Shown here piece by piece: positions 18,190-50,483 of a stretch of 61,512 nucleotides of DNA. The translations under genes and the position numbers were made by a program. Under the pieces are notes generated by a model. That model saw only the letters and a program-made list of their open reading frames with translations, was not told where the DNA came from and searched no databases. Origin of the DNA: Lachnospiraceae bacterium (GTDB lineage: Bacteria; Bacillota; Clostridia; Lachnospirales; Lachnospiraceae). Where the stretch lies: assembly GCA_024405155.1 (NCBI GenBank), contig JAKSPC010000007.1, forward strand, positions 1-61,512, written 5' to 3'. Within the stretch, counting starts at the first letter, position 1; the number at the start of each line of letters is the position of its first letter.

Positions 18190-19386
18190 TTATCTGCCTC
18201 CGGTCAGTACCGAATACACTTTCGGCACGTATTTCTTCATGATGACGGACAGCCCGTATGCTGTCCCTATGCAGATGGCGGGCATCATCAGATAGGTGAT
18301 GACGTTTGCCGTCTGATTGCCGTTCAGTCCCGCCGCCGTCTCCAGCGCCCAGATGATGCGGATGATCATGTAGTGGGTGGCGTAGACGAAGAAGTTCACT
18401 TTCATCCAGGGCCGCACCTCTATGCCGCCCTTCTTTTCATATACAAGTTCCACAAGGAAATATACGGCCAGTGCCCCGGCGGCGCGGTAGCCTACTTCGC
18501 AAATGTTCCTTAAGTCCGCGGGAAGCACGCTCCGCACCAGCAGGAATAACGCTGTCGCGGCAACTGTGATAATGAAGCCACGCGCGGGCGGTACCATGCT
18601 TCGGCGCCATTCCGCAGCTTCGGACAGTTCTCGCTTCGCTGCGAAACTCGCTGCGGAGCTGGCGCAGCTCGCAATCCACCCGCGCTGTGCGTCGTCAGGC
18701 AGAGAGGCAGCCGGTAGCGAATCGTGCAGGGCATCGTCAGGCGACGGTGGATTTCGGTGTGTGCCTGCTTCGGGACGAGTAGCAGCTTGCTGCTCCCGAA
18801 GGCCCGAACAGGCACCCCGAAGGGTACCGCCGTCGCCGTATGTGCCGCGCAGCACCAAATAGGCTCCCAGACAGTAGTAGAACAGCGCGTCTTCGTTGCA
18901 GTAGTGGAACGGAAGTTTTGCGTACAGGACCGCCAGTGTAAAGATGGCGGCAAGCAGAATGAGCGCCGCCGCGCGCCCTTTCTTCATTATATAATAGATG
19001 ACCGGTGCCAGGACGGTGATGAGGATGAGCTGGAACATGTACCAGAACACGGGATTGCACCGGTACAGGAATACGGCTTCGAAGATCTCCCCGATCTGCG
19101 CCCGTCCCGTCACCAGATAGATCACGAAATAGATGGCATTCCACAGAAGATACGGGATCACCAGGGTGTTCACCCGGCGCTTCAGCTTCCCTCTGACGGC
19201 TTCCTTTTCGGCAGCCGCGTCATCCGACGGGATCCCCTTCATGAACAGATATCCGCTCAGCATGAAGAATCCGGGCACGGCCACCTGTCCGGGAACATAA
19301 CTTAAGAGTGGCTCCCCTGCGTGGAGCCACACTACAAAGATCGTAAATATGAAACTGGTGAGCAGAAGCTTTTCGTTCTGTTTCAT
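18190..19386 (-). CDS. Membrane acyltransferase (acyltransferase 3 family) with an in-frame repeat insertion
   Basis: This polytopic protein (398 residues) shows hydrophobic segments throughout and the VPGFFMLSGYLFMKG motif typical of acyltransferase-3 proteins, which O-acylate cell-surface glycans. Between about residues 183 and 269 the hydrophobic pattern stops and a Pro/Ala/Ser/Arg-rich stretch appears (for example PPSPDDALHDSLPAASLPDD), which breaks what would be one membrane helix pair (YLVLRGTY ... FIITVAATALFLLV). That stretch is encoded by two oppositely oriented structured repeat elements (18581-18687 and 18740-18838). The insertion is a multiple of three and stop-free, so the reading frame survives. 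Whether the product is active is unknown. Confidence 0.8.
   Translation of the reverse strand: MKQNEKLLLTSFIFTIFVVWLHAGEPLLSYVPGQVAVPGFFMLSGYLFMKGIPSDDAAAEKEAVRGKLKRRVNTLVIPYLLWNAIYFVIYLVTGRAQIGEIFEAVFLYRCNPVFWYMFQLILITVLAPVIYYIMKKGRAAALILLAAIFTLAVLYAKLPFHYCNEDALFYYCLGAYLVLRGTYGDGGTLRGACSGLREQQAATRPEAGTHRNPPSPDDALHDSLPAASLPDDAQRGWIASCASSAASFAAKRELSEAAEWRRSMVPPARGFIITVAATALFLLVRSVLPADLRNICEVGYRAAGALAVYFLVELVYEKKGGIEVRPWMKVNFFVYATHYMIIRIIWALETAAGLNGNQTANVITYLMMPAICIGTAYGLSVIMKKYVPKVYSVLTGGR
18581..18687 (+). repeat. Structured element family (GGCGGTACC/AATCCACC), copy A, inside the acyltransferase gene
   Basis: The outer stem is GCGCGGG/CCCGCGC, followed by conserved GGTACC on the left and AATCCACC on the right, then TGC/GCA and inner stems GCGCCA/TGGCGC and CCGCAGC/GCTGCGG. 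Its apical part differs from that of copies B and C. It is oriented opposite to the host gene. Confidence 0.75.
18740..18838 (-). repeat. Structured element family, copy B, inside the acyltransferase gene
   Basis: Read on the minus strand: outer stem GGCGACGG/CCGTCGCC, GGTACC and AATCCACC internal loop strands, stem TTCGG/CCGAA, stem GTGCCTG/CAGGCAC with a bulged G, stem TTCGGG/CCCGAA and a conserved apical hairpin GGAGCAGCAAGCTGCT. The same layout with different base pairs occurs in copy C at 50384-50483. It faces copy A across about 52 bp. Confidence 0.8.
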
Positions 19387-19388
19387 CT

Positions 19389-20579
19389 TTATTTTTTCTG
19401 CGCTTCCTTATACTCCGCCACTTTATTGGCGATCCTTTCGTAGGGGGCCAGCAGCGGATCCATGGATGCGTTGTGATTCAGGGTATCGATGATCAGCGCC
19501 ACATACTTGGCCAGCTTCACTTCCTTATACCAGGGCTTTTCCACCAGCCCGTCGGGATGATGGATCAGGTCCGTGGTGAATACCTTGTCGATGATGCCGA
19601 ACTCATTGGCCACGTCGAATTTCTCCAGTCCGCCGGTAAAGAGGCCGAAACTTGCGAAACAGAACACTCTCTTCGCGCCTCTCTTCTTTAAGGACTTGGC
19701 AACATCCACCATGGTGCCGCCGGAGGAGATCATGTCATCTACGATGAGCACGTCCTTGCCGGTCACGTCGGCGCCCAGGAATTCAAAGGCCACCACCGGG
19801 TTTCCTTCTGCAGAATAATCTCTTCTCTTATAGAACATGCCCATGTCCAGGCCCAGGTTGTTGGCAAAGAAGATCGCACGGGGCATGCCGGCTTCATCGG
19901 GGCTGATCACCATCATGTGGTCGGTGTCGATGGTAAGATCCGGCACGGAATTCAAAAGTGCCTTGATGTGCTGATGCACGGGGGTCACGGATTCGAAGGT
20001 GGTAAGGGGGATGGCGTTCTGTACTCTGGGCTCGTGGGCGTCGAAGGTAATGATGGTGCTGACGCCCATCTCCTCCAGCTCCTGCAGCATCTGGGCGCAG
20101 TCCAGAGATTCCCGCTCCGTTCTGGCATCCTGTCTGCCTTCATACAGATAGGGCATGATGACGGTAAGGCGCTTTGCCCGGCCGGCGGAAGCGGAGATCA
20201 GACGCTTTAAGTCCGCGAAATGATCGTCGGGAGAATAATGGTTCTCCACGCCGTTTACCTTATAGGTGATGGAACTGTTGGTCACGTCCGAAATGAAATA
20301 CAGATCGTAGCCACGGACGGATTCCTCGAACACGCCCTTTCCTTCGCCGGAACCGAAACGGGGCGTTTTGGAACCGATGATATAGCTTTCGCGCTCGTAG
20401 CCGGTGAACAGAAGATGATCTTTCTCCAGATCGTCACGCTCCGCTCTCCACTTCTCCAGATAATCGTCCACTTCCTTTACGAAGCTTTCCTCTCCTGCCA
20501 GGGAAACGATCCCCAGGGGGCCGAAAGGAACGGATACCGGTTTCTGCTCAGATCTGCCTTTGATTTTTTCTGTACTCAT
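19389..20579 (-). CDS. prs: Ribose-phosphate pyrophosphokinase
   Basis: PRPP synthetase makes 5-phosphoribosyl diphosphate from ribose 5-phosphate and ATP for nucleotide, His and Trp synthesis. The PRPP-binding loop VLIVDDMISSGGTM is near residue 275, and PYLYEGRQDARTERESLD resembles the catalytic flexible loop. At 396 residues it is longer than the usual 310-320, owing mainly to an N-terminal extension. Its start overlaps the dnaC stop (ATGA), so it is translationally coupled to the replication genes. Confidence 0.9.
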   Translation of the reverse strand: MSTEKIKGRSEQKPVSVPFGPLGIVSLAGEESFVKEVDDYLEKWRAERDDLEKDHLLFTGYERESYIIGSKTPRFGSGEGKGVFEESVRGYDLYFISDVTNSSITYKVNGVENHYSPDDHFADLKRLISASAGRAKRLTVIMPYLYEGRQDARTERESLDCAQMLQELEEMGVSTIITFDAHEPRVQNAIPLTTFESVTPVHQHIKALLNSVPDLTIDTDHMMVISPDEAGMPRAIFFANNLGLDMGMFYKRRDYSAEGNPVVAFEFLGADVTGKDVLIVDDMISSGGTMVDVAKSLKKRGAKRVFCFASFGLFTGGLEKFDVANEFGIIDKVFTTDLIHHPDGLVEKPWYKEVKLAKYVALIIDTLNHNASMDPLLAPYERIANKVAEYKEAQKK

Positions 20580-21604
20580 GTTCTGTCTCCTTTGGTGCGT
20601 GCCTTTTTCAGGCGAAGATCCGTTCCGAAAAATCCGATGACGGTGTACCCTCCCATGATGCGGGAAGAAATGCGTTCCCCGTACATGCGGCTTATTTCGT
20701 TCAGATCACAGTTCGATGATATTATAGTTGAAGAACCCGTGGAAAGTCTACGGGAAATCAGCGAAAACAGCCGGGATACGGAAAAATCGGAAATGGCCTC
20801 CGTTCCCAGATCGTCAATGATGAGAAGATCGCAGTTCTCCGCCTTCTCAAGCCGTGAAGCCGTGCCGTCCGGCTCGTCGCCTCTGGCGGCTTTCCGGTAC
20901 ATGTCGAAAAGCTCCGCGGCGCTTACGTAGATCACCGTGTTCTGCCGGTCCATGAGGCTCTTTGCCACGCAGCCGGTCAGATAGGTCTTTCCGGTGCCGG
21001 AGGGCCCGGTAAGAAACAGGTTGTGGGAACCGGGACGGTCGAACTCCTCCACGTACCTGATCATCCAGGGGATCACGTTCTTTTCCATGTAAGCCTTCTG
21101 GGTAAGTTTCCTTCCGGGAAGATCCGGCATGGGCGCGGAATCGTCATAAACGGCGGAAGAAAACTTCTCCATGCCGAAGACGGGAAGAAATCCGGGAAGT
21201 CCGGACTCCCGGTTGATGAGCTCCGCCTCCAGAGAAGCAAAGCAGGAACACTTCTCATTCTCCACGTAGCCGGTATCCCCGCATTTTCTGCAGGTGAACG
21301 ACGGCTCCAGCTGATCCGGCCGGAACCCGTATTCCTTTAACAGATCCTTTTTCGTCTTCAGAAGATCCCGGCGCATCTTCACGCACTCGGACACCTTCTT
21401 TTTCCCCGCTTCCCTATCCTTCGCGAACCGGGCGGAAAGCTCCTCCCGGTTAATGCGCATCAGTTCCTCATTTAAGTCGGAAAGAGCAGGAATGGCCTTT
21501 TCCGCCTCTTCCTGCTTTCTGCTCTGATCCCTGTAAGCGAACGCCCTGCGCCCGTCAAGGACTCTCTTTATTTCGTTGTACTGCTCTGCTGTCAGTGACA
21601 TCAA
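20576..21604 (-). CDS. dnaC: Helicase-loader ATPase DnaC/DnaI
   Basis: This AAA+ protein loads the replicative helicase. It has an N-terminal helical part, a zinc-binding C-X2-C ... C-X-C cluster (CRKCGDTGYVENEKCSC) near residue 105, Walker A GPSGTGKTYL near residue 200 and Walker B LLIIDDLG near residue 262. Length 342. It overlaps dnaD (upstream) and prs (downstream) by four bases each, a tight operon. Confidence 0.9.
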   Translation of the reverse strand: MMSLTAEQYNEIKRVLDGRRAFAYRDQSRKQEEAEKAIPALSDLNEELMRINREELSARFAKDREAGKKKVSECVKMRRDLLKTKKDLLKEYGFRPDQLEPSFTCRKCGDTGYVENEKCSCFASLEAELINRESGLPGFLPVFGMEKFSSAVYDDSAPMPDLPGRKLTQKAYMEKNVIPWMIRYVEEFDRPGSHNLFLTGPSGTGKTYLTGCVAKSLMDRQNTVIYVSAAELFDMYRKAARGDEPDGTASRLEKAENCDLLIIDDLGTEAISDFSVSRLFSLISRRLSTGSSTIISSNCDLNEISRMYGERISSRIMGGYTVIGFFGTDLRLKKARTKGDRT

Positions 21605-22293
21605 TCCACCAGTTTCTCCATGAGATCCTGCATGGCCAGTTTGTTGTAGTCCGTCTTTCTGTCGGACGAAACGATCCTGGGGGAAACGCTCTCCGCTTTC
21701 TTTTTCTTCTTCCCCTGGCGGCTCTTCACGTAATTTCTGGCCGCTTCCTCCGTCCGGATACCGTTGGCGGCCCAGTCCGCGCCGGCTTTCTCAATGTAGC
21801 GCATATCGCCGCCGGCGTTATCCACCGCGTAGGCCACCAGATAATCGATCACCTCTGCGGGAAGGGACAGCCCGTCATACAGATAGGCCAGCACCTGGAT
21901 CTCCGCGTCGCTCATCACACGGGAAAGATAGGTCTGCGCGATGATGAGCAGCTGCCGGAAGGTATCGTCCAGCTTTAAGCGGGCCAGGATCCTGGTGCTC
22001 TCCGCGCCGCGGTAACGGCTTCTCAGATCGTCCGTCTGTGGTCTTTCTTCTTCCTGCCCGGTCATGGTCAGTACGCCTTTCTCCTGCCAGTATTTCACGG
22101 CACGTTCCACATCGCCCTCGGTGAGCATCAGTGCACCGGCCGCTTCGCTTAAGGTAACTTCCCGGGCAGCGTTTCGTAAAAGCCACAGATAGACCTTCAC
22201 GTAATCGCCGTTTGCCTGGGGCATGTATTCATCTATAAATCGATCGCTTACGGGGACTGCTCCCACGGAAAGCGCGTTTTGTACATTCATCAT
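21601..22293 (-). CDS. dnaD: DnaD-domain primosome protein
   Basis: The 230-residue protein has an N-terminal winged-helix-like part (YVKVYLWLLRNAAREVTLSEAA) and a C-terminal DnaD/DnaB domain with the YxxxI-like core (YLYDGLSLPAEVIDYLVAYAV and IEKAGADWAANGI). DnaD-family proteins remodel the origin and recruit the helicase loader, which matches the coupled dnaC gene downstream. GGAG lies 5 bases upstream of the first of two tandem ATGs. Confidence 0.88.
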   Translation of the reverse strand: MMNVQNALSVGAVPVSDRFIDEYMPQANGDYVKVYLWLLRNAAREVTLSEAAGALMLTEGDVERAVKYWQEKGVLTMTGQEEERPQTDDLRSRYRGAESTRILARLKLDDTFRQLLIIAQTYLSRVMSDAEIQVLAYLYDGLSLPAEVIDYLVAYAVDNAGGDMRYIEKAGADWAANGIRTEEAARNYVKSRQGKKKKKAESVSPRIVSSDRKTDYNKLAMQDLMEKLVD

Positions 22294-22372
22294 TTCACTC
22301 CAATGGTTGATGTCTGAATTTTAACACCTGAGGGGTGAAAAGTGAATAGATGAGGGGTTTACGTAAAGATTT

Positions 22373-22487
22373 TGTGGATAATGTGGATAAATCCGAAAAA
22401 GCCTTATAAATAAGGGGTTTCCGTTTTCACTTATCCACAGAGAAACTTTACATAAATAGCTGAACGGCTGTTCACGGATGTTGATAA
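22373..22487. promoter_or_regulatory. Cluster of DnaA boxes upstream of dnaD-dnaC
   Basis: Three perfect TTATCCACA nonamers occur: two tandem on the minus strand (22373-22381 and 22382-22390) and one on the plus strand (22431-22439). A near match (TTATCAACA, minus strand) is at 22479-22487. The intervening sequence is AT-rich (CCTTATAAATAAGG). The cluster lies between murC and dnaD and could be a DnaA-controlled promoter region, a DnaA titration site, or part of an origin. A possible dnaD promoter (TTCACT-N17-TAAAAT, minus strand) lies just downstream. Confidence 0.75.
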
Positions 22488-23870
22488 CTATTCCTCTGTC
22501 AGCGAATCCGCTATTTCTACCACGTTTCCGGCACCCATGGTTATCAACACGTCGCCGGGGGACAAATTCTCTCTCACGTAATTCTTAATTTTTTCAAAAT
22601 CGCCCAGATAAACGGCATTTCCGCCGATCTGATTGATCCGTTTGGCCAGGTCTTCCGAACTGACACCGTAAACGTCCTTTTCTCTCGCCGCGTAGATATC
22701 GGCCACGATCACCTCGTCGCACAGCATCAGCGCATTGGCAAAATCCTTTAAAAGCGCCTTCGTACGGGAATAGGTATGGGGCTGGAAAACCACCGTCAGC
22801 TTCCTGTGGGGATACAGCTGTGCGGCTTTCAGCGTGGCCATGATCTCCTGGGGATGATGGGCGTAGTCGTCGATGACGGTCCAGCCGTCCACTTCGCCTC
22901 TCACCTGGAACCTGCGGTCCGTGCCGGTGTAATACACCAGTGCCTTTGCCGCTTCTTCCGGAGCGATTCCCAGGCGCTCGCAGGCGGCGATGGCCGCCAG
23001 GGAATTGTACACGTTGTGCTGTCCGGGAACGGAAAGCTGCACATGGCAGCAGGGCTCTCCCTTCTTTAACAGCGTATAGGACGCACAGGCCTTGTCATCG
23101 TAAGTAATGTCCTTCGCCGCGTAGTCATAGTCCGCGGATTTACCGAAAGTCACGAAGCCGCACTTCAGATCTTCCAGGAAATACTCCACGTGATGGATAT
23201 CCCCGTTGATCACCAGAAATCCCCGTTCATCCTGGGGCAGCCGCATGATGAATTCCCTGAAGGAATGACGGATGTCGTCGATGTCGCGGAAGAAATCCAG
23301 ATGATCCGCTTCCACGTTCAGCACCACGGAAAGGGTGGGATAGAAACTTAAGAAGCTGTTGCAATACTCACAGGCCTCTGCCACGAAAACGTCGGAGGCG
23401 CCGATGCGGATGTTTCCGCCGATGGACTTCAATACGCCGCCTACGGAAACGGTGGGATCCTTCCCGGCCTCCAGAAGGATCTGGGTGATCATGGAGGTGG
23501 TGGTGGTCTTTCCGTGGGTGCCGGCCACGTTTACGGATTCCCGGTAGTTGAGCATCAGCTCACCCAGAAGCTCCGCCCTGGTCATCAGCGGGATGTGGCG
23601 GCGATATACTTCCTGAAGTTCCGGATTGTCCTGCCGGATGGCAGCCGTATAGACCACCACGTCGGGCGCGTCGATATTGGAGGCCGCCTGACCGATGGTA
23701 ACTCTGGCGCCGGCTCTTTTCAGATTTTCCGTCAGTTCCGATTCTTTCGTATCGGAACCGGAAACAGAAAAGCCCTTGTCCATCAGGATGTCGGCCAGTC
23801 CGGACATGGAGATGCCGCCGATACCGATGAAATGGACGCGGCAGGGTTTATTGAAATTTATCTGATACAT
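22488..23870 (-). CDS. murC: UDP-N-acetylmuramate--L-alanine ligase
   Basis: MurC adds L-Ala to UDP-MurNAc in peptidoglycan synthesis. The UDP-binding FIGIGGISMSGLADIL is near residue 14, the ATP loop NVAGTHGKTTTTSM near residue 113, and the C-terminal domain carries DDYAHHPQEIMATL and FQPHTYSRT. The start at 23870 gives 460 residues, the family length; the longer open frame upstream overlaps the ATPase gene and looks non-coding. It ends at the DnaA-box cluster. Confidence 0.95.
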   Translation of the reverse strand: MYQINFNKPCRVHFIGIGGISMSGLADILMDKGFSVSGSDTKESELTENLKRAGARVTIGQAASNIDAPDVVVYTAAIRQDNPELQEVYRRHIPLMTRAELLGELMLNYRESVNVAGTHGKTTTTSMITQILLEAGKDPTVSVGGVLKSIGGNIRIGASDVFVAEACEYCNSFLSFYPTLSVVLNVEADHLDFFRDIDDIRHSFREFIMRLPQDERGFLVINGDIHHVEYFLEDLKCGFVTFGKSADYDYAAKDITYDDKACASYTLLKKGEPCCHVQLSVPGQHNVYNSLAAIAACERLGIAPEEAAKALVYYTGTDRRFQVRGEVDGWTVIDDYAHHPQEIMATLKAAQLYPHRKLTVVFQPHTYSRTKALLKDFANALMLCDEVIVADIYAAREKDVYGVSSEDLAKRINQIGGNAVYLGDFEKIKNYVRENLSPGDVLITMGAGNVVEIADSLTEE

Positions 23871-23908
23871 GTATTGCCTTTCTGTTGCGGAGAATTCCCC
23901 GCTGTAAA

Positions 23909-28181: not shown

Positions 28182-28193
28182 CAGATAATTTCC

Positions 28194-33185: not shown

Positions 33186-33204
33186 GGTTCCCTTTATTCC
33201 TTAT

Positions 33205-33351
33205 ATGATACGAGTCGCTCCGCGCTTCGCGCTCTGAGCGTAACTATTCAGAACGCGCGCGTCATTCGCATTCCGCCGCTATCGCGGCTTCATGCTCATG
33301 AACGGTTCATCCGGCATGATACGAGTCGCTCCGCGCTTCGCGCTCCGAGCG
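33205..33351 (-). repeat. Tandem pair of TGATACGAGTCGCTCC repeats in the gntR leader
   Basis: Two nearly identical 36-bp segments, 33205-33240 and 33316-33351, differ by a single base in the matching part. On the minus strand each contains GCGCGAAGCGC, a stem with the GAA triloop known to be unusually stable in the GCGAAGC context, flanked by CGCTC/GAGCG. They alternate with the GA-loop hairpins at 33263 and 33361, so the leader is a two-fold repeat of about 100-110 bp. Confidence 0.75.
33263..33300 (-). repeat. GA-loop hairpin, copy 2 (gntR leader)
   Basis: On the minus strand: CAT-GA-GCAT-GAA-GCCGC, GATA loop, GCGGC-GGA-ATGC-GA-ATG. The upper stem differs from copy 1 (GCGC) but remains fully paired. 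Confidence 0.75.
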
Positions 33352-33360
33352 CCTCTAAAA

Positions 33361-33406
33361 CATTCGCAATCCGCACGTTTTCTTCGAAAACGGCTTCTTG
33401 CTCATG
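33361..33406 (-). repeat. GA-loop hairpin, copy 3 (gntR leader)
   Basis: On the minus strand: CAT-GA-GCAA-GAA-GC-CGTTTTC, GAA loop, GAAAACG-(T)GC-GGA-TTGC-GA-ATG. Relative to copies 1 and 2, GCAT/ATGC became GCAA/TTGC on both sides, a compensatory change, while the GA/GA and GAA/GGA loops are unchanged. Confidence 0.75.
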
Positions 33407-33474
33407 TTTTGCGGGCCAGAAGACCGCTTTTACTGCAGCGAGCTGCGTAAAATCGATCTCCTGACCCTTGTATC

Positions 33475-33503
33475 ATTGTATCAAAAATAATACATTCGTA
33501 CAA
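33475..33503 (-). promoter_or_regulatory. Promoter of the gntR efflux operon
   Basis: TTGTAC, a 17-bp spacer and TACAAT with an upstream TGA (extended -10) lie on the minus strand. A tandem direct repeat of TTGTATCA (plus strand, 33468-33483) overlaps the -10 element and is a candidate operator for the GntR protein. The predicted leader is about 280 nt. Confidence 0.65.
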
Positions 33504-33547: not shown

Positions 33548-33599
33548 GTGATATGTGCTCCATCGAGGCCCTTATGCCTGTTTTCGTTCACCTCAAAAA

Positions 33600-33869
33600 C
33601 CGGCATGTGAGCCGGTAAGCGGTTTAAGCCGCTTCCGGCTCACATAAATGCTCAGGAAATTTTTGCCGATTTGGACCTCTGGGGCCTTTGCTCCCTCTCC
33701 GGCTCACATCGTCTCCGAAAATCCTGCTGAAATTGTCTCAAAACAGTTTACATAACTTTCTACATGTGAGCCTATCGGCGTCAAACCACGCCAGCGGCTC
33801 ACATCACAGTTTTTTGCCTTTTTCAGCATGTGAGCCGGAACGGCCTTGATGCGCCTAGCGGCTCACATC
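33600..33869. repeat. Four-unit palindrome element ATGTGAGCC-N23-GGCTCACAT, copy 1
   Basis: Units of exactly 41 bp start at 33605, 33669, 33764 and 33828. Units 1, 3 and 4 have arms ATGTGAGCC and GGCTCACAT; unit 2 has a degenerate left arm ATTTGGACC. Unit 1 is paired throughout (AAGCGG-TTTAAG-CCGCTT inside). The block lies between the 5'-nucleotidase 3' end and the terminator at 33512 and contains no reading frame of note. A second copy with identical spacing is at 56748-57017. Confidence 0.9.
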
Positions 33870-37163: not shown

Positions 37164-37167
37164 AGCT

Positions 37168-37572: not shown

Positions 37573-37582
37573 ATCTTCTCCT

Positions 37583-38203: not shown

Positions 38204-38212
38204 AATAGGAAC

Positions 38213-38221
38213 ATTATATCA
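38213..38221 (-). promoter_or_regulatory. Extended -10 promoter of the NERD operon
   Basis: TATAAT preceded by TGA on the minus strand stands 9 bp upstream of the first ATG. Transcription would begin at or within a few bases of the start codon. No good -35 is visible. Confidence 0.5.
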
Positions 38222-38322
38222 TATTTTCAGCCGCAAAGCCGCCGGAAAGCCCTGCATTTTTCACAGCCTTTTAATAATTATACCGACCGGTCCATGATAC
38301 AATATGCATGGAGGATCTTATA

Positions 38323-40958: not shown

Positions 40959-41006
40959 CGTTTGCCTCATTCTTTTCTGATATGTGACCTTTTGATCCCG
41001 GGCGTT

Positions 41007-42745: not shown

Positions 42746-42819
42746 ATGTCTGCTGCCTCTTCTCTTTCTTCACAGGAAACGTTTCTTATCCGGGATCCGC
42801 GGTTCCCTGCGCGCCGGCG

Positions 42820-43518: not shown

Positions 43519-43545
43519 CTTTCCTCCTTTCCCGGTCACTGGTGA

Positions 43546-43647
43546 TCAGTAAAGAAGTACGGTAATGAGGGCCATCAGTTCCCTGCGGGAAAGGTAACCG
43601 TCGATCTCGTAGAGATAGTTCCCGCAATAACGCCGGATCCGTGCCAT
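43546..43647 (-). CDS. Small 33-residue protein upstream of the SanA-like gene
   Basis: AGGAGG, 8-base spacing, ATG and 33 codons: MARIRRYCGNYLYEIDGYL, then SRRELMALITVLLY. It has its own extended -10 promoter (TGC-TATACT, 43674-43682, minus strand) and stops 27 bp before the SanA-like start, so both are probably one transcript. I do not recognise the peptide; it has a basic start and a hydrophobic end. Confidence 0.6.
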   Translation of the reverse strand: MARIRRYCGNYLYEIDGYLSRRELMALITVLLY

Positions 43648-43673
43648 AGCATGTACCTCCTGACTCTGTATCA

Positions 43674-43682
43674 AGTATAGCA
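43674..43682 (-). promoter_or_regulatory. Extended -10 promoter of the small gene and SanA-like gene
   Basis: TGC-TATACT on the minus strand about 26 bp upstream of the small gene's start. The -35 region is poor (GTTTTT), which suits an activated promoter. The palindrome array begins about 50 bp upstream of it. Confidence 0.5.
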
Positions 43683-43730
43683 CACTTCCCATGAAAAAAA
43701 ACAGACGTCCGCCCCGCCCGAAATTCAAAA

Positions 43731-43896
43731 ATACATATAACTGGCCGCTTTCGACCGTATTATATGCAAAAAAACCGGATTTTCGGCAGCGGGATACATA
43801 TAACTGTCGCTTTTTCGTTCAATTATATGTATGTAACCCCTTGTCCTTAGCCTAAATATACATATAATAGCGCGATTATTGTTGTATTATATGTAT
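43731..43896. repeat. Array of three ATACATATAA-N19-TTATATGTAT palindromes
   Basis: Units of 39 bp start at 43731, 43794 and 43858, each with 10-bp inverted arms and exactly 19 bp between them. Only the right arm of unit 1 has a mismatch (TTATATGCAA). The inner 19-mers and the spacers are unrelated in sequence. The period is 63-64 bp. The array lies in a 405-bp gap without genes, upstream of the small gene's promoter. Confidence 0.9.
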
Positions 43897-43939
43897 GGAG
43901 TCGTTCACACACCCTGGCCGTCAGGCGCACCATTCAAAT

Positions 43940-43969
43940 AGCCCGGAGTTCCTGGCTCCGGGCTTTTTG
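43940..43969 (+). terminator. Intrinsic terminator
   Basis: AGCCCGGAG-TTCCTGG-CTCCGGGCT is followed by TTTTTGTT on the plus strand. On the minus strand the following bases are only moderately T-rich, so as a terminator of the Gfo/Idh/MocA gene it is weaker. No plus-strand gene ends here, which leaves open that the palindrome array is transcribed. Confidence 0.65.
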
Positions 43970-44052
43970 TTATCTCTTTCTTGTTCTCTCTTTTTTCGAT
44001 TTTCTTTTTCGATGCCTGCCCGGGATCCTTGCCCGCTCAGGCCGTGACCACG

Positions 44053-45225
44053 TTAAAACTCTGTCCGCTTTCCTTCTTCCGCTGCCGCGTAGGCCGCATA
44101 CATGGCCAGAGTCACGTTCTTTGCCAGCTCGAAATCCGCCTGGGCTTCCCGGTCATAGGCCACTGCCTCGCAGAAGTCCTGGATCTCCGCCGCATAGCCC
44201 CTTATCACGTCATCTACCACAAAGGGATTGTTCCAGCCGGTCTTGATGGGAAGCATCTCGGAAAGGGAAACGTTCTCCAGGCCGTCCTCATCCACCATGT
44301 AGGTCTGCATGAGATCCGCCAGAGTAAGGTTGCACTTGATGGCCGCGTCGTTGCAGTAGCAGTCCACGTAGTTGAGGCTGCCGCCCAGAAGCGCATCCGT
44401 TGCAATGATGGTGGCCTTGGTGCCGTCGGTAAAGGTGAGACACATGGTGCACAGATCCTCCACGTCGTGGGGATCGGCGGCAATGTGCCGATGCTCATAT
44501 GCGGAAAGGGAAGGGGTGATGCGGGTCATATCCGCCACCACGGACTCCGGACGGATCTCCTCGCCCCGGGCCTTTGCCTCCACGCTCTTTAAGTAAAGCG
44601 CCGCGCCCAAAGGATGGGAACCCACCCGCATCAGAGTGCCGCCGCCGCTCTTTTTCCAGTAGCCGGCCACGGGAGAAGAGCTTCCTTTCAGGCTCTCTTC
44701 GCCCTTCAGATACAGGATGCGGGATTTCTTTGCCCGGATGATCTCCGCCGCGCGCTGCACGGCCGGCGCATAGACGAAATTCTCCGCGTAGCAGAAATGC
44801 TTTCCGGATCCTTTCACAGCTTTTTCCAGTCTGGCGATGTCCTCCTTCATGCACTCAAACATGTGCGTCTTTGACACTTTGTCGCCGATGGGCTCTTCAT
44901 CGCCCTCCCGGCCGAAATAACCGGTGAGGGGCTTTTCGCAGATCACGTTCTTGCCGGCGGCAAGAGCCTTTATGATCATATCGGGATGGGCATAGGGCGG
45001 CGTGCAGATATCAATAAGGTTGATCTCCGGATCCTTCAACAGGTCCTCGAAATCATAGACCGCCTCTTCGAAGCCGTAGCGCGTCTTTGCCGCGTCCGCC
45101 GCCTCTTTTTTCATATCCATGACCTTCTTGAGGCGCAGGTCAACGCCGTATACCTTCTGATATCCTCCCATGTGCAGCTCGCAGCCTCTGGCCGCGCCCG
45201 CCATGCCAAGTACTACCTGATTCAT
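44053..45225 (-). CDS. Gfo/Idh/MocA-family NAD(P)-dependent oxidoreductase
   Basis: This family oxidises sugars, cyclitols and related alcohols. The N-terminal Rossmann fold begins MNQVVLGMAGAARGCEL, the conserved EKP motif with its Lys is in NVICEKPLTG near residue 97, and GGGTLMRVGSHPLGAALYL near residue 195 forms the substrate side. Length 390. It is the last gene of the catabolic operon, 16 bp after the isomerase gene. Confidence 0.9.
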   Translation of the reverse strand: MNQVVLGMAGAARGCELHMGGYQKVYGVDLRLKKVMDMKKEAADAAKTRYGFEEAVYDFEDLLKDPEINLIDICTPPYAHPDMIIKALAAGKNVICEKPLTGYFGREGDEEPIGDKVSKTHMFECMKEDIARLEKAVKGSGKHFCYAENFVYAPAVQRAAEIIRAKKSRILYLKGEESLKGSSSPVAGYWKKSGGGTLMRVGSHPLGAALYLKSVEAKARGEEIRPESVVADMTRITPSLSAYEHRHIAADPHDVEDLCTMCLTFTDGTKATIIATDALLGGSLNYVDCYCNDAAIKCNLTLADLMQTYMVDEDGLENVSLSEMLPIKTGWNNPFVVDDVIRGYAAEIQDFCEAVAYDREAQADFELAKNVTLAMYAAYAAAEEGKRTEF

Positions 45226-45241
45226 AAAACAACCTCCATGT

Positions 45242-46075
45242 TCATCCCAGACATTTCTTTGCCGTATCCAGGCACATCTTTGCGTGACCTGCGGCGCCCA
45301 GCTCCTGCATCTTCTTCAGGTTGGGGAGCTCAATGGAAATATCGTGGCCGGGAAGGGCATCAATGAGACCCTTCACGTCCATGGCGCCTTCGCCGGCATA
45401 GAATCTTGCCTCTCTGGCGGTGTAGAGCATCAGGTCATCGTGGATGTCGGCAAGCACGGGGTCTCCGTCGGGACCGGCCGGGCCGTCGCACAGATGGATG
45501 AAGCCGAAATAATCGCCGGTGGTCCTCTTCACTTCCTCTTTGGTCACACCGGCTCTGCCTGCGTGAAGCGTATCCAGCATGACGAATACGTTGTCATGAC
45601 CCAGCGCGCGCATGTTGTCCACCAGCGTGATGTCCTCCTGCAGGCTCCGGATGCCTGCCCAGGGAAGGAACTCCACATTGACTTTGAGACCGTACTTTGC
45701 GGCCAGCGCTGCGGTCTCCGCCACCTTTTCGTTATAGATGGCCTTGTCGCGGGTCCATACGGAAGAAAGCACGTCGGTGGCGCCGATCTCGGCGGCCTTT
45801 TCGAAAGCGGGCTCCAGTTCGGAAACGTTAAGCTCCGGGCGGAACCGCACCAGCTCGATGTCGTGCACCTTCATGCCGGTCTCTTTAAGAGCGGCCTTGA
45901 TGTCGGAAAGCAGTTTCGCGTCCTTTTCCAGCACAAATTCCGGCTCACCGGGAAGGTGCATGGGGATGGTACGGAGGCTCACGAAATCATAGCCCGCGTC
46001 TTTGGCGATGTGGATCTGGGAAACCGGGTCCGTTCCCGGAATGGTAAGATAGGCAAGAGAATACTTTCTATCCAT
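45242..46075 (-). CDS. Sugar phosphate isomerase/epimerase-like TIM-barrel protein
   Basis: The 277-residue protein has the metal-binding pattern of the xylose-isomerase-like barrel: VNVEFLPW, VMLDTLHAGR, FGFIHLCDGP and DISIELPN give Glu, Asp/His, His and Glu. Relatives isomerise sugars, dehydrate inosose, or act as 3-dehydroshikimate dehydratase. The start at 46075 has AAAGGAAAA upstream; a longer open frame runs into the ThDP-enzyme gene and is not credible. Confidence 0.85.
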   Translation of the reverse strand: MDRKYSLAYLTIPGTDPVSQIHIAKDAGYDFVSLRTIPMHLPGEPEFVLEKDAKLLSDIKAALKETGMKVHDIELVRFRPELNVSELEPAFEKAAEIGATDVLSSVWTRDKAIYNEKVAETAALAAKYGLKVNVEFLPWAGIRSLQEDITLVDNMRALGHDNVFVMLDTLHAGRAGVTKEEVKRTTGDYFGFIHLCDGPAGPDGDPVLADIHDDLMLYTAREARFYAGEGAMDVKGLIDALPGHDISIELPNLKKMQELGAAGHAKMCLDTAKKCLG

Positions 46076-46095
46076 GAGTTTTCCTTTCTTTGCAT

Positions 46096-46134
46096 AAAAA
46101 GCGGCAGGCGTTTCCCGAAAGAAGCGCTTGCCGC
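46096..46134 (-). terminator. Terminator-like hairpin between the ThDP-enzyme and isomerase genes
   Basis: GCGGCA-A-GCG / CGC-C-TGCCGC followed by TTTTTA on the minus strand lies within the 70-bp gap. It could cut expression of the isomerase and Gfo/Idh/MocA genes to partial read-through. Confidence 0.65.
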
Positions 46135-46145
46135 AGGGGGACCGC

Positions 46146-47981
46146 TTACTGCGGTTTATGGCTCTTCTTGTGATCGGGACGCAGGTAGCCGCCGTTTCCG
46201 TCGGGTACCAGACGGCCGTTCTCCACGGCCTCGTTAGGCCGGTAGATATCGTTGATGTTCCAGCAGCCGGGCGTGGGCACGGCGATATTTTCCATGATGG
46301 CTTCCACCAGGAAGGGACGTCCTTCACGGTTCGCCTGCATGGCCTTTTCCATGGCGGGCTTGAAATCATCCGCGCATGTGGTGCGAATGGCTTCCACGCC
46401 GTAAGCCTTTGCCACTTCCGCCCAGTTGGGGGAATAGGGCTTCCCGTCCGGCGTCCTGAACTCGGTGCCGAACTTGGTCTCGTAACTGCCGTTTTCCAGA
46501 CCGGCAATGGTGCCGAACGCGTAGTTGTTCATCACCACGAAGGTGCAGGCGATGCCGTGCTCCACGGCGCCCGCCAGTACGGACGGGTTGATGCCGAAAC
46601 CGCCGTCGCCGGTAAGGGTAACTGCCACTTTATCCGGAGCCGCCAGCTTTCCGCCCATCACCGCTGCCGCGCCGAAGCCCATGGTGGCAAGGCCGGAGCT
46701 GTGGTGAATGGTGCCGGGGATGGTGATGTCATACTGCTGTGCCACGCCGTTCTTGTTCCAGCCCACATCGGTAAAGATGAGAGCGTCTTCCGGAAGGACT
46801 TCCTTTACGTCCTTAAGGATGCGCTGGGGCGTCATGGGGAAGCGGCCGTCTTCGGAAATGGCCACGTTGGAAGCCTTGAATGCGGCTCTTGCAGCGGCGA
46901 TCTTTTCTCTTACTTCGGGGCGCTTCTTTCCTTCCGGGCAAATCTTCTTTGCTGCCGCAAGGATCTGTGCCAGAGCCTTTTTCAGGTCTGCCACGGCACC
47001 GGCGATAACGGGATAGTTCCTTCCGATCTCTGCGGGATCGATGTCGATCTGCATGAACTTCGTCTTTGTGGGATCGAAGGTCACGCCCTGATACCAGCTG
47101 GAGCTGTCCGCTTCGGCGAAACGGGTGCCGAGACCTAAAATAAGGTCTGCGTTTTTGGTGAATTCATGGGTCTGATCCAGGCCCCAGAAACCGGTCTGGC
47201 CTGCCATGAGAGGATGGGTATCCGGGATGCAGCCCTGGCCTGCCAGAGTGCGGGATACGGGAATATCCAGAAATTCCGCCAGCGCGGCCAGCTCTTCGGA
47301 GGCTCTTGCCAGCAGGATGCCGCCGCCGGCATGAAGCACCGGAGCTTTGGCTTCGATCAGCTTTTTCGCAAAGAACTCTGCGTCCTCTTCGGAAAGAGCG
47401 GGTTTCGCGAGCAGCTCTTTTTTCACTTTGGTACGGTCCCACAGAGACTCTTCCATCTCCCGCGAAAACATGTCCATGGGCACGTCGATGAGCACCGGGC
47501 CGGGACGGCCGGATTCCGCCAGGTTGAAGGCGCGCTCCACGATATCCGGCATGGCGTTCACGTCGTCGATCCTCCAGGCACGCTTCACCACGGGACGCAG
47601 CAGTTCGTACTGGTTCCCGTCCTCGTGCATCTGCACTTCCTGATGGGGATGACGGCCATAGTAATAGCTGGGCACATCGCCGGCAATGACTACCATGGGA
47701 ATGGAATCCAGAGAGGCGTTGGCCACTCCGGTGATCACGTTGGTGATGCCGGGGCCCACGTGGCACATGGCCACAGATGCCTTGTGAGTTACTCTGGCGT
47801 ATCCGTCGGCGGCGCAGGAAGCGATGGCTTCATGGCGCATGCCGATGTACTCGATTTTTTCGCTGCGGGAAAGGGCATCCAGAAAACCGATCAGGGTATG
47901 GCCGCAAAGTCCGAAGATCTTTTCGACGCCGCGGTTTTCCAGGTATTCGACCAGAAGGTCGGCCATCAGTCTTTTACTCAT
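46146..47981 (-). CDS. Thiamine-diphosphate-dependent enzyme (acetolactate-synthase-like)
   Basis: The protein (611 residues) has three domains: an N-terminal pyrimidine-binding domain with the catalytic Glu in GMRHEAIASCAADGYAR near residue 51, a central domain, and a C-terminal diphosphate-binding domain with GDGGFGINPSVLAGAVEH near residue 450 and the NN of VVMNNYAFG. Relatives include acetolactate synthase, benzoylformate decarboxylase and sulfoacetaldehyde acetyltransferase. The linked acylating dehydrogenase suggests 2-oxo-acid decarboxylation to an aldehyde, but that is inferred. No small regulatory subunit gene is nearby. Confidence 0.85.
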   Translation of the reverse strand: MSKRLMADLLVEYLENRGVEKIFGLCGHTLIGFLDALSRSEKIEYIGMRHEAIASCAADGYARVTHKASVAMCHVGPGITNVITGVANASLDSIPMVVIAGDVPSYYYGRHPHQEVQMHEDGNQYELLRPVVKRAWRIDDVNAMPDIVERAFNLAESGRPGPVLIDVPMDMFSREMEESLWDRTKVKKELLAKPALSEEDAEFFAKKLIEAKAPVLHAGGGILLARASEELAALAEFLDIPVSRTLAGQGCIPDTHPLMAGQTGFWGLDQTHEFTKNADLILGLGTRFAEADSSSWYQGVTFDPTKTKFMQIDIDPAEIGRNYPVIAGAVADLKKALAQILAAAKKICPEGKKRPEVREKIAAARAAFKASNVAISEDGRFPMTPQRILKDVKEVLPEDALIFTDVGWNKNGVAQQYDITIPGTIHHSSGLATMGFGAAAVMGGKLAAPDKVAVTLTGDGGFGINPSVLAGAVEHGIACTFVVMNNYAFGTIAGLENGSYETKFGTEFRTPDGKPYSPNWAEVAKAYGVEAIRTTCADDFKPAMEKAMQANREGRPFLVEAIMENIAVPTPGCWNINDIYRPNEAVENGRLVPDGNGGYLRPDHKKSHKPQ

Positions 47982-47984
47982 GAT

Positions 47985-48911
47985 TCATTCCTTTCTTAAC
48001 AATATCCTGTCTGCTCTTCCCGCCCGAAGCATAGAGCTGTCGGTGGGGTGTCCCACGGCCTCAGCCACCCGGCGGGCTGTTTCGATAGCCATGTCCAGGT
48101 CGATACCGGTATGAACGCCGCAGCCTTTCATGGCGTGCACCACATCTTCCGAGGCCACATTTCCGGTGGCGCCGGGTACGAAGGGGCATCCGCCCACGCC
48201 GGCAAAAGCGCTGTCAAAATTGGTAAATCCCGCCTCGATGCCGGCAAGGATGTTGGCGATGCCGAGACCGCGGGTGTTGTGGAAGTGGAGCCAGAACTTC
48301 ACCTCCGGGTAGCGCTTCTTCATCTCCTCGCAGATGTCGTAGACCTGACCGGGATAGGCCTGGCCGGAGGCATCGGAAAGAGAGATCTCGGTCACGCCTG
48401 CTGCCAGATAGGCGTCAATAATGCTGCAGACCGTGCTTACGGGGATCTCACTGTCCCAGGGAGAACCGAAGGCCATGGAGATGGAGCCGGAGACCTCGAT
48501 CTTCTTTTCTTTTGCCGCTTCCACGATGGGAGCAAACCTGGCCACAGATTCCGCCGGGGTGCAGTTTAAGTTCTTCAGGTTGTGGGTCTCGGAGGCGGAA
48601 ACGTTCAGTTTCGTCTTTACGCATCCGCAGTCGGCGGCCCGCTCCAGTCCCTTCATGTTGGCGATGAGCGCCCGGTATTCCACGCCGGGAGCTTTCGTGA
48701 GGCGGCGGAAAACTTCGTCCGTATCCGCCATCTGGGGCACGGCTTTGGGGCTCATAAAAGAGCCCACTTCCACTACCTTGAAACCGGAGGAGACGGCGCG
48801 CTCAATGAGGCACACCTTCTCATCGGTGGAAAGGATCTTCTGCTCGTTCTGGAGACCGTCCCGGGGGCCTACCTCACAGAGCGTAATGGTTTTTCCAGTG
48901 TAAAGCGACAT
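47985..48911 (-). CDS. HMG-CoA-lyase-like DRE-TIM metallolyase
   Basis: VGPRDGLQNEQKIL near residue 13 holds the metal-binding Asp and catalytic Arg, and the signature FAGVGGCPFVPGATGNVASE contains the catalytic Cys near residue 237. The second metal-site motif is HFHNTRGLGIANI. Family members cleave 3-hydroxyacyl-CoA thioesters, for example HMG-CoA into acetyl-CoA and acetoacetate. Here an operon with no leucine-degradation genes suggests another 3-hydroxyacyl-CoA. Length 308, 3 bp from both neighbours. Confidence 0.88.
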   Translation of the reverse strand: MSLYTGKTITLCEVGPRDGLQNEQKILSTDEKVCLIERAVSSGFKVVEVGSFMSPKAVPQMADTDEVFRRLTKAPGVEYRALIANMKGLERAADCGCVKTKLNVSASETHNLKNLNCTPAESVARFAPIVEAAKEKKIEVSGSISMAFGSPWDSEIPVSTVCSIIDAYLAAGVTEISLSDASGQAYPGQVYDICEEMKKRYPEVKFWLHFHNTRGLGIANILAGIEAGFTNFDSAFAGVGGCPFVPGATGNVASEDVVHAMKGCGVHTGIDLDMAIETARRVAEAVGHPTDSSMLRAGRADRILLRKE

Positions 48912-48913
48912 GT

Positions 48914-50350
48914 TTATTCCTCATCCATTCCGTCATGATAGAACTCGCCGAACAGCTCGGTAAGGGAGGGCATGTCCTCGGGAATGGGACGTGCCACCCA
49001 GGTGGTGTTCATGTAATGCTTCAGGCAGATATTCTCGGAAACGATGTTGCCGCCCCAGGTGCCGCAGCCCATGGATGACGTGGGCGGCATGCCGTTGGTG
49101 GCGGAACCGGCGTTGCCCTTGTTGTTGGGCTGACGCACCATGATACGTGAAACGGGAGCTGCCAGGCCCAGGCGATGGATGTGGTCGTCATTCCAGGAAT
49201 AGATGCCGCAGGAATGGCCCTTGCCGCCTACGTTAAAGATCTTGCGCATCATATCGAGGGCGTTCTCAAACTCGCCTTCGTACTTGAAAAGCGCCAGGAG
49301 CGTGGTGAGCTTTTCGGAGGAGAACAGGTACTCCTTGCCGATCTCATTAATGCCGCCGCCGGTGACGGCGATGAACTTTCTGTCCGCGGGAATGCTGAAC
49401 CCTGCCGCCTCGGCAAGCTTCACTGCCGAAATGGCCACGGTGCCGGGAAGACGGTGACCTTCCGCATCCCACATGACGGCTTTCAGCTTTTCGGCCTCTT
49501 CTTCATTGGCAAGATAGGCGCCCTCTTCCTGAAGCGCCTTTACGAACTCATCGTAAACGGACTCGTGAACTACCAGGTTGCCGTCGCAGCTGCAGCCGGA
49601 ACCGAAGTCGGAAGTCTTGGAAATGCGGGTATTTCTTGCTGCCTCGCGGACCTTTTCGGCCGTATTGGCAGTCTCATCCACGATGACGGTGGCGTTGCCG
49701 GCACCGGAACCGTAAGCGGGAGTTCCGGAAGAGTACGCGCTCTTTACCATGGGACGGCCGCCGGTGGCGATGACAAGGTCACATTTCTGCATCAGCACCT
49801 GGGTAAGGGCGATGGAGGGCTCTTCGATGCCCTGGATGATATCCGCGGGAGCGCCCTCGCGTACCAGCACGTCACGAATGATGTTGATGCACTTCATGGT
49901 GACTTTCTTTGCCCTGGGATGGGGGGAGCAGATGATGACGTCACGGGCCTTTACCGCATACAGGATCTGGCCTGCGGGAGTAAGGCAGGGATTGGTGGTG
50001 GGTACGAGGCTGGCGATCACGCCTACGGGCTTCGCATATTTCACCAGGCCCTTTTCCGGGTTCTCTTCAATAATGCCCACGGACTTCTGTCTGAGGCAGT
50101 CGCGCAGGATCAGTTTCAGTTTGTTTCTCTTATTTCTCTTTGTTACCTTGTCGCCCAGGCCTGTCTCGTCCACGGCCTCATCGCTGAGCTCTGCCCATAC
50201 CTTCAGGTCATAGAGCTTTGCGGCGATGGCGCGGCACAGTCTGTCGACTGTTTCCTGGTCGTAGGTCTCAATGACAGCGGCGGCCTTTCTTGCCTTTGCC
50301 ACCATCTCGTCGATCATGATGATGTCCTGTTCCGTTACTTCTCTTGCCAT
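48914..50350 (-). CDS. CoA-acylating aldehyde dehydrogenase
   Basis: This 478-residue protein resembles the aldehyde dehydrogenase half of AdhE and the sulfoacetaldehyde dehydrogenase group: GVIASLVPTTNPCLTPAG near residue 105, ATVIVDETANTAEKVREAA, and the probable catalytic Cys in TSDFGSGCSCDGNLVV near residue 253. NNKGNAGSATNGMPPTSSMG and CGTWGGNIVSENI match the AdhE-type C-terminus. It would turn an aldehyde plus CoA and NAD(P)+ into an acyl-CoA. It is the first gene of the operon, with GGAGG before the ATG. Confidence 0.88.
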   Translation of the reverse strand: MAREVTEQDIIMIDEMVAKARKAAAVIETYDQETVDRLCRAIAAKLYDLKVWAELSDEAVDETGLGDKVTKRNKRNKLKLILRDCLRQKSVGIIEENPEKGLVKYAKPVGVIASLVPTTNPCLTPAGQILYAVKARDVIICSPHPRAKKVTMKCINIIRDVLVREGAPADIIQGIEEPSIALTQVLMQKCDLVIATGGRPMVKSAYSSGTPAYGSGAGNATVIVDETANTAEKVREAARNTRISKTSDFGSGCSCDGNLVVHESVYDEFVKALQEEGAYLANEEEAEKLKAVMWDAEGHRLPGTVAISAVKLAEAAGFSIPADRKFIAVTGGGINEIGKEYLFSSEKLTTLLALFKYEGEFENALDMMRKIFNVGGKGHSCGIYSWNDDHIHRLGLAAPVSRIMVRQPNNKGNAGSATNGMPPTSSMGCGTWGGNIVSENICLKHYMNTTWVARPIPEDMPSLTELFGEFYHDGMDEE

Positions 50351-50383
50351 ATATATGCCTCCGTTTACTATTTTGCATCATTC

Positions 50384-50483
50384 ACGCGCGGGCGGTACCA
50401 TGCTCGGTGAGTGTTTGCGCCTTCGGGAGCAGCAAGCTGCTACTCGCCGCAAAGCACTCACGCGTCGCAATCCACCCGCGCTG
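50384..50483 (+). repeat. Structured element family, copy C, in the leader of the aldehyde-dehydrogenase operon
   Basis: Outer stem GCGCGGG/CCCGCGC, GGTACC and AATCCACC loop strands, TGC/GCA, stem GTGAGTG/CACTCAC, a bulged G, stem TTTGCG/CGCAAA and the conserved apical hairpin GGAGCAGCAAGCTGCT. It lies between the predicted transcription start near 50515 and the ATG at 50350, in antisense orientation relative to that transcript. Confidence 0.8.

What the first reader, a model, noticed from the sequence alone, without database searches (positions are those of the whole stretch)
18740..50483. A roughly 100-nt structured element with strong covariation between copies
Copies B (18740-18838, minus) and C (50384-50483, plus) keep GGCGGTACC, the apical GGAGCAGCAAGCTGCT region and AATCCACC, while three stems change in step: GGCGACGG/CCGTCGCC versus GCGCGGG/CCCGCGC, GTGCCTG/CAGGCAC versus GTGAGTG/CACTCAC, and TTCGGG/CCCGAA versus TTTGCG/CGCAAA, each with the same bulged G. 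Copy A (18581-18687) shares the outer module with a different apical part. Such compensatory change implies selection on folding, as RNA or single-stranded DNA.
Basis: seen in the sequence. Interest (0 to 1): 0.85.

Follow-up and report, generated by a model that had tools for sequence, protein, structure and literature searches.

The report
Dispersed mobile hairpin DNA repeat family
The three hairpins are among about fifty copies of a roughly 100-base repeat scattered through one gut bacterium's genome, whose two arms change together with few visible intermediates, which makes it a good natural test of how DNA hairpins keep their arms matched.

Summary
Copies A, B and C are three of 52 copies of an imperfect hairpin of about 100 nt in this 2.03 Mb Lachnospiraceae genome. 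One diverged copy exists in 1 of 24 congeners; none was found in 396 other family genomes searched with stricter filters. Over 38 aligned copies 97.0% of pair cells are standard; 121 cells carry changes on both sides against 36.4 in shuffles. Between nearest relatives both-sided flips outnumber one-sided changes 60 to 6, with almost no G.U at the 25 pairs scored. A bulged base is invariant. 49 of 52 copies lie outside predicted genes; A and B sit inside an acyltransferase gene whose 11 aligned congeneric homologues lack the insert. No Rfam match, no consistent target-site duplication; a recurrent AC foot. Best reading: a new, nearly species-restricted family of non-autonomous palindromic mobile DNA of the REP/ERIC/bcr1/RPE kind, probably recognised as folded single-stranded DNA; mobilising enzyme unknown. 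The covariation does not by itself prove selection on an RNA: arm-to-arm template switching is a serious alternative that fits the scarcity of intermediates.

The parts
18580..18687 (+). Copy A (type-2 apex), plus-sense on +: foot AC, outer arms GCGCGGG/CCCGCGC, loop GGTACC.../...AATCC, foot TG; inside the acyltransferase ORF
18738..18841 (-). Copy B (type-1 apex), plus-sense on -: foot ATAC, outer arms GGCGACGG/CCGTCGCC, foot TG; inside the same ORF, about 50 nt from copy A in opposite orientation
50384..50484 (+). Copy C (type-1 apex), plus-sense on +: foot AC, outer arms GCGCGGG/CCCGCGC, foot TG; between a divergent Aldedh gene and a LysR-type regulator gene
18190..19386 (-). Acyltransferase ORF (PF01757), 398 aa, carrying copies A and B as an in-frame insert of about 87 residues that 11 aligned congeneric homologues lack
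48914..50350 (-). Aldehyde dehydrogenase family gene (PF00171) whose start lies about 35 nt from copy C (context only)
50640..51533 (+). LysR-family regulator gene, divergent from the Aldedh gene (context only)

Best explanation
This is a family of small non-autonomous mobile DNA elements that act as single-stranded DNA hairpins. Shown: 52 dispersed copies in one genome; an imperfect stem of 25-30 pairs with a conserved asymmetric internal loop near the base (plus sense GGTACC / AATCC), an invariant bulged base in mid-stem (38 of 38) and a variable apex; one clean insertion into a gene against homologues; no consistent target-site duplication; AC (often ATAC) directly 5' of the hairpin and TG 3' of it in a large minority of copies; near-absence from the relatives searched. 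Inferred: an HUH/Y1-type or other structure-reading recombinase, not identified, recognises the folded strand through loop, bulge and foot, and pastes it mainly between genes, as for REP or IS200/IS605 ends. Inferred, less sure: the arms stay complementary because DNA hairpin synthesis (template switching at the fork) copies one arm onto the other, while transposition weeds out hairpins that lose loop and bulge. Side effects probably include acting as part of terminators at some gene ends and adding peptide to a gene.
For: Copy number and dispersal. Near species restriction. In-frame insert absent from 11 aligned homologues, of 16 congeners with a match. Bulged C33 in 38 of 38 copies. At least 70 Watson-Crick to Watson-Crick changes over 30 pairs on the copy tree, and all four state combinations for 42 of 45 pairings of ten variable stem pairs; 60 both-sided vs 6 one-sided changes between nearest relatives. 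AC directly outside the left arm in 21 of 49 copies, including 11 of 23 with non-default arms; TG on the right in 16 of 49. ATAC near the left boundary in 14 of 49 vs 1-3 at four farther offsets. Adjacent direct repeats within the shuffled range. Foot tetranucleotide plus stem irregularity is what the E. coli TnpA-REP enzyme needs (PMC8266576, passages). Internally deleted forms, as hairpin slippage gives.
Against: No mobilising enzyme is tied to it: the two Y1_Tnp genes have no model hit within 5 kb, and the RAYT-like one has its own different inverted ends. The foot is not the GTAG or CGTC of classical REPs, was noticed after looking, and is missing in more than half of the copies. Minus sense runs with the genes in 23 of 31 co-directional gaps (p = 0.011), which could point to an RNA role (or strand bias). 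A second hairpin repeat in the window shows mostly one-sided differences (3 one-sided, 1 both-sided of 71 predicted pairs, one pair of copies), so concerted arms are not shown to be general in this genome. The letters GGTACC and AATCC were part of the pattern that chose the aligned rows, so their invariance there is by construction; among the 52 model hits one (C8:21965) has GATCC for AATCC.
Confidence: 0.7

Rival explanations
1. A functional RNA: a processed 3' UTR or intergenic RNA module that binds a protein through the conserved internal loops, multiplied in this species, with stems kept by selection on RNA folding.
For: Minus sense is co-oriented with neighbouring genes in 23 of 31 co-directional gaps; the non-Watson-Crick pairs of the basal stem are U.G in that sense (column pair 17-99 in 38 of 38, 13-104 in 30 of 38); RNA folding energy is on average 3.9 kcal/mol lower in that sense, and lower in 33 of 39 copies; conserved unpaired motifs.
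Against: G.U almost absent at the 25 other pairs scored (1 of 1217 ungapped cells); copies inside a gene, nested copies and stripped-down copies; near-absence outside one species; no Rfam family.
Confidence: 0.13
2. Mobile transcription terminators: the hairpins persist because the outer arms serve as terminators at gene ends.
For: Outer arms with A-run/T-run tails at several convergent or 3'-end sites, e.g. AAAAGCCCCCTAAG/CTTAGGGGGCTTTT at C42:71300; the exact 14-mer occurs at only two loci, both element arms; even among 26 default-arm copies 11 have at least 4 T in the 6 nt after the right arm.
Against: 15 of those 26 have no such T-rich stretch; the T-rich side follows the plus sense, but plus sense runs with the genes in only 8 of 31 co-directional gaps; gene context is like element-free gaps by length. 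The one-mismatch search gave 4 matches and its reversed control also 4, so only the exact matches count.
Confidence: 0.1
3. A MITE derived from a classical DDE insertion sequence with terminal inverted repeats.
For: Size, palindromy, intergenic location.
Against: No consistent target-site duplication; arms differ in sequence and length between copies, so there is no fixed terminal repeat. DDE transposase families as such were not searched.
Confidence: 0.07

Closest known systems
bcr1 of the Bacillus cereus group
   Same: One hairpin-forming dispersed repeat of similar size (147-167 bp), narrow host range, mobile behaviour (table entry and a reference title seen in PMC2267715; hairpin details recalled)
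   Different: No sequence comparison was made; bcr1 copies are reported with a duplicated target (recalled), none consistent here
REP / BIME / REPIN with TnpA-REP (RAYT)
   Same: Hairpin with a stem irregularity and a foot tetranucleotide; mostly between co-directional and convergent genes; some intragenic units (PMC8266576, PMC3733652, passages)
   Different: About 100 nt rather than 20-40; foot AC/ATAC...TG, not GTAG or CGTC; the RAYT-like gene in this genome is not flanked by it
Rickettsia palindromic elements (RPE)
   Same: Palindromic repeat inserted in frame in a protein gene (a passage on RPEs seen in PMC3733652)
   Different: Here only one gene with in-frame copies is verified; most copies are outside predicted genes; no sequence comparison made
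ERIC / BOX / YPAL intergenic repeats
   Same: 70-170 nt dispersed stem-loop repeats (ERIC and YPAL: table in PMC2267715; BOX modularity recalled)
   Different: No direct sequence comparison made; no Rfam hit here

Membership tests
REP (GTAG or CGTC class) with RAYT | GTAG or CGTC tetranucleotide at the foot of the hairpin | tested here: not met
   Flank profiles and k-mer counts of 49 copies show AC/ATAC and TG, not GTAG or CGTC
REP (GTAG or CGTC class) with RAYT | 20-40 nt unit | tested here: not met
   Core plus arms 83-134 nt in 49 copies
REP (GTAG or CGTC class) with RAYT | Linked or flanked RAYT gene | tested here: inconclusive
   Two Y1_Tnp genes, neither with a model hit within 5 kb; one has other inverted ends; one lies at a contig start and the genome is about 93% complete
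Small dispersed palindromic mobile elements (the general kind: ERIC, bcr1, RPE, REP) | Many dispersed copies of a hairpin-forming unit in one genome | tested here: met
   52 copies
Small dispersed palindromic mobile elements (the general kind: ERIC, bcr1, RPE, REP) | Insertion at sites empty in relatives | tested here: met
   One site tested: acyltransferase gene, 11 of 16 matching congeners aligned, none with the insert; other sites not compared because the relatives are distant
Small dispersed palindromic mobile elements (the general kind: ERIC, bcr1, RPE, REP) | Shown to move, with a known enzyme | not testable with these tools
   No strain series and no mobiliser found
MITE of a DDE insertion sequence | Target-site duplication | tested here: not met
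   At most 2 of 49 copies with an adjacent repeat of 3 nt or more at each of five offsets; shuffled partners mean 0.6-2.2, within their range
Known Rfam RNA family | Covariance-model score above gathering threshold | tested here: not met
   No match at the window's copies; none overlapping the copy in 5 loci at E up to 10

The most novel reading that the evidence does not exclude
The hairpin's two arms evolve as one character: a change in one arm is copied to the other in a single step by templated DNA synthesis during replication or transposition, so the element diversifies through whole-pair and whole-arm rewrites, while its recognition loops are kept by the mobilising enzyme. The family would be a natural record of template-switch mutation producing textbook covariation without selection on RNA.
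Probability: 0.35. Interest if true: 0.75.

Novelty: new member of a known kind. Interest (0 to 1): 0.5.

Why it matters
Covariation is commonly taken as the best evidence of functional RNA structure. This family shows very strong covariation among paralogues in one genome in what looks like mobile DNA. If the paired changes are made in one step, covariation alone cannot be taken as proof of RNA function, and the family makes the template-switch hypothesis of Monttinen and Loytynoja (PMC8794818, abstract and the start of the introduction as shown in the outline) directly testable in bacteria. It also adds a repeat family that I found in neither Rfam nor the papers searched, and shows short palindromic DNA lying in frame within a protein gene.

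Tried and rejected
Rfam at gathering and permissive thresholds: no family at the element. RAYT or IS200 as direct parent: two Y1_Tnp genes found, neither near the element. IS110 and reverse transcriptase in the own genome: none at E <= 0.001. Outer arms taken from target terminators: favoured for a while because arms differ by site and some look like terminators; weakened because AC and TG lie outside arms of quite different sequence and one terminator-like arm occurs at two unrelated element loci and nowhere else exactly. Preference for particular gene gaps: not supported against 64 element-free gaps from the window and four long loci (co-directional 31 vs 33.7 expected, convergent 7 vs 4.2, divergent 4 vs 4.1; that control holds only 2 divergent and 3 convergent gaps). 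Paralogous empty sites by flank BLAST within fetched loci: none seen. Viral contigs: none. The only genome-contig hit outside the genus, in an Acidobacteria MAG, shows no such hairpin by eye and looks like chance.

Rows dropped: the interrupted copy L038 and the contig-end copy L016 were left out of the pair counts; L033 and the odd apex L036:181 were kept. The 49 copies of the boundary counts are the 52 pattern rows without L038, L016 and L014; the 49 are those without L038, L016 and L087. The G.U count leaves out column pairs 13-104 and 17-99 (wobbles), 40-76 (15 of 38 non-standard, 3 G.U), 41-75 and 6-111. C8:21965, C11:12826, C42:24668, C45:39546, C34:25948, C17:9307, C45:11629 and C23:104428 are not in the 38-row alignment. 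The 11 rows added came from covariance-model hits and lean towards pairing; the 38 rows do not. The family search scored only 9 candidates per genome, so weak copies could be missed. An earlier alignment held one row at wrong coordinates and was replaced. The tree was built on the same columns whose changes it counts, and recombination between copies would inflate those counts. Gene calls come from a home-made codon score. The maximal arm can over-extend by chance pairing. The control hairpin was folded as an alignment, which favours pairs kept in both copies. Confidence in the best explanation went from 0.72 to 0.70 and the terminator rival from 0.08 to 0.10 after the recount of T-rich tails.
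Full report
WHAT IS THERE. BLAST of copy C against the window's own genome (2,027,948 bases, 46 contigs, 93% complete) gave 44 matches, some of them fragments. A covariance model built from 38 copies found 52 matches with E <= 1.7e-7. Below, the sense with GGTACC first is called plus and the opposite sense minus.

ANATOMY. In minus sense the unit is: outer arm, GGYGG, ATT, GC(G), a 7-pair stem, a bulged C, a further stem of about 6-8 pairs, a variable apex, and the return strand ending ...GC, two to four unpaired bases, GGTACC, GCC, outer arm. Among the 38 aligned copies 19 have the type-1 apex, 17 type-2 and 2 others. Two long forms carry an extra side hairpin at the basal loop (C11:12826; C42:24668) and one has that side hairpin alone (C45:39546). 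Core plus arms measure 83-134 nt in 49 copies. The bulged C33 is present in 38 of 38. The letters GGTACC and AATCC were part of the pattern that chose the rows, so their invariance in the alignment is by construction; independently, the 30 best BLAST loci all show both, while one of the 52 model hits has GATCC.

COVARIATION. 97.0% of 1137 pair cells are standard pairs (shuffled 84.8%); 16 of 30 pairs have both-sided changes (shuffled 8.9); 121 cells are both-sided (shuffled 36.4; slid registers 4-18); covariation score 0.306 against 0.098 shuffled. The number of further pair types (26) does not exceed shuffles (23.9; 93 of 500 reach it). On a FastTree tree of the same rows at least 70 Watson-Crick to Watson-Crick changes are needed over the 30 pairs, and 42 of 45 pairings of ten variable stem pairs show all four state combinations. 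Between nearest neighbours (31 comparisons) there are 60 both-sided Watson-Crick flips, 6 one-sided changes, 2 other both-sided changes, and 47 substitutions over 35 unpaired columns. Per position: 1.79 flips per inner pair and 4.33 per outer pair, against 1.34 substitutions per unpaired site. Among the 17 comparisons that differ by at most 6 nt there are 12 flips, 2 one-sided changes and 10 unpaired substitutions. Over 49 copies and 25 pairs there are 1198 Watson-Crick, 1 G.U, 18 mismatched and 8 gapped cells. That count leaves out the wobble pairs 13-104 and 17-99, the irregular pairs 40-76 (3 G.U, 15 non-standard of 38) and 41-75, and the edge pair 6-111. As a control, another hairpin repeat in the window (33595-33869 and 56743-57017) differs on one side at 3 and on both sides at 1 of 71 predicted pairs; that is one pair of copies, folded as an alignment.

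WHICH STRAND, RNA OR DNA. In minus sense the basal pairs 17-99 (38 of 38) and 13-104 (30 of 38) are U.G; in plus sense they would be C.A. RNA folding energy is lower in minus sense in 33 of 39 copies, and minus sense runs with the flanking genes in 23 of 31 co-directional gaps, p = 0.011. This marks the minus strand as the structured one, but does not separate RNA from a strand-selective single-stranded DNA substrate. The near-absence of G.U at the other pairs argues for DNA-level pairing.

PLACES. Of 52 copies found by the loop pattern, 31 lie between co-directional genes, 7 between convergent genes, 4 between divergent genes, 3 inside predicted genes, and 7 lack a called gene on one side (home-made gene calls). 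That split is about what element-free gaps give by length, in a small control of 64 gaps. So genes are avoided, but no preference among gaps is shown. Copies A and B form an inverted pair inside an acyltransferase gene (PF01757). Alignment with 11 of the 16 congeners that have a homologue shows an in-frame insert of about 87 residues containing both copies, absent from all 11. The third 'inside' call (C34:93482) is a weak ORF that I did not verify.

ENDS. The outer arm differs in sequence and length between copies (26 different arm strings in 49 copies), with 5 to 14 complementary bases beyond the first position in every one. AC lies directly outside the left arm in 21 of 49 copies (11 of 23 with non-default arms), and TG directly outside the right arm in 16 of 49. 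ATAC falls near the left boundary in 14 of 49, against 1-3 at four farther offsets. These motifs were noticed after looking, and more than half of the copies lack them. Adjacent direct repeats stay within the shuffled range. Several copies at gene ends have arms with A-run and T-run tails, like intrinsic terminators. 11 of 26 default-arm copies have at least 4 T in the 6 nt after the right arm. The exact 14-mer AAAAGCCCCCTAAG occurs only in arms of two element copies on different contigs; with one mismatch there are 4 matches and the reversed control also has 4. So such arms appear able to travel with the element.

RESIDUES OF ACTIVITY. One copy carries another hairpin inserted in its apex (C23:107657). 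One stands next to a half copy (C26:19326). Stripped forms retain outer arms and loop remnants (C17:9307, C45:11629, C34:25948). These are what hairpin slippage and nested insertion would leave; this is inference.

SPREAD. One diverged copy in 1 of 24 congeners (G017), none in 16 other genomes of the order. The G017 contig has the same length as a contig titled Lachnospiraceae bacterium Horse_feces194, and a search of G017 with that copy finds no second one. None in 396 other family genomes, searched with stricter filters and 9 candidates each. A loop pattern finds 48 places in the own genome, none in 24 congeners, and none for the reversed control. Viral contigs: none.

WHAT MOVES IT. Unknown. 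Two Y1_Tnp genes exist, neither with a model hit within 5 kb; one is RAYT-like with its own different inverted ends. No IS110 and no reverse transcriptase were found. The foot plus irregular-stem design resembles what TnpA-REP and IS200/IS605 enzymes read (PMC8266576, passages), so a Y1-type enzyme acting in trans is my preferred but unproven mobiliser.

HOW THE ARMS STAY MATCHED. Two accounts remain. (i) Selection at transposition: only well-paired hairpins move, and copies are young. (ii) Templated arm-to-arm change by fork template switching, a mechanism proposed to create and maintain RNA hairpins (PMC8794818, abstract and start of the introduction). The flip rate per pair, at or above the single-site rate, is hard for (i) alone, though the unpaired columns are themselves partly constrained. 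Recombination between copies could also reshuffle stems, but would have to be symmetric about the hairpin. I put (ii), alone or with (i), at about one in three.

RELATION TO KNOWN KINDS. It works like a REP/ERIC/bcr1/RPE-type dispersed palindrome, but it fails defining features of REP proper (foot, size) and of a DDE MITE (target-site duplication). I therefore file it as a new family of the general kind. I found no description of it; searches were Rfam and the paper searches, which cover only open-licence papers. PMC12306157 and PMC2267715 were seen as passages only; no passage shown mentions a Lachnospiraceae family.

Noticed in passing
window 33595-33869 and 56743-57017: Another dispersed repeat, about 275 nt, 85.5% identical, built of ATGTGAGCCGG...CCGGCTCACAT hairpins; parts recur in other fetched contigs.
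   Followed up: partly
window 33317-33475 (minus): Clostridiales-1 RNA (RF01699), 88.9 bits; one copy of a 36-nt 97% direct repeat (33205-33240 and 33316-33351) overlaps its 3' end.
   Followed up: no
window 15591-15686 (minus): S10-Clostridia ribosomal protein leader (RF03136), 60.9 bits.
   Followed up: no
window 50539-50588 and 55548-55597: 50-nt stretch 86% alike at two places, one of them between copy C and the LysR-type gene.
   Followed up: no
L043 1395-2241 (G000 contig C14): RAYT-like 251-aa Y1 protein flanked by a 36-nt inverted pair (83% complementary) containing GGACGGTTCTTC, a different system from the hairpin studied here.
   Followed up: partly
L086 1480-1640, L087 1472-1612, L140 (G000 C45:39546-39630): Variants of the element with a side hairpin GGCGC..GCGTCCGGGGGACGC..GCGCC at the basal loop, possibly closer to an ancestral form.
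   Followed up: partly
G000 contigs C3, C35, C23, C17; also C25, C18, C45: Copies or fragments lie at the ends of four contigs and within about 100 nt of an end in three more, so the repeat may break the assembly and the true copy number may be higher.
   Followed up: no
49 copies, right flank in plus sense: Bases just outside the right arm are T-rich (T in 31, 17, 28, 28 and 25 of 49 at positions +1 to +5); terminator tails or a target preference would both give this.
   Followed up: partly
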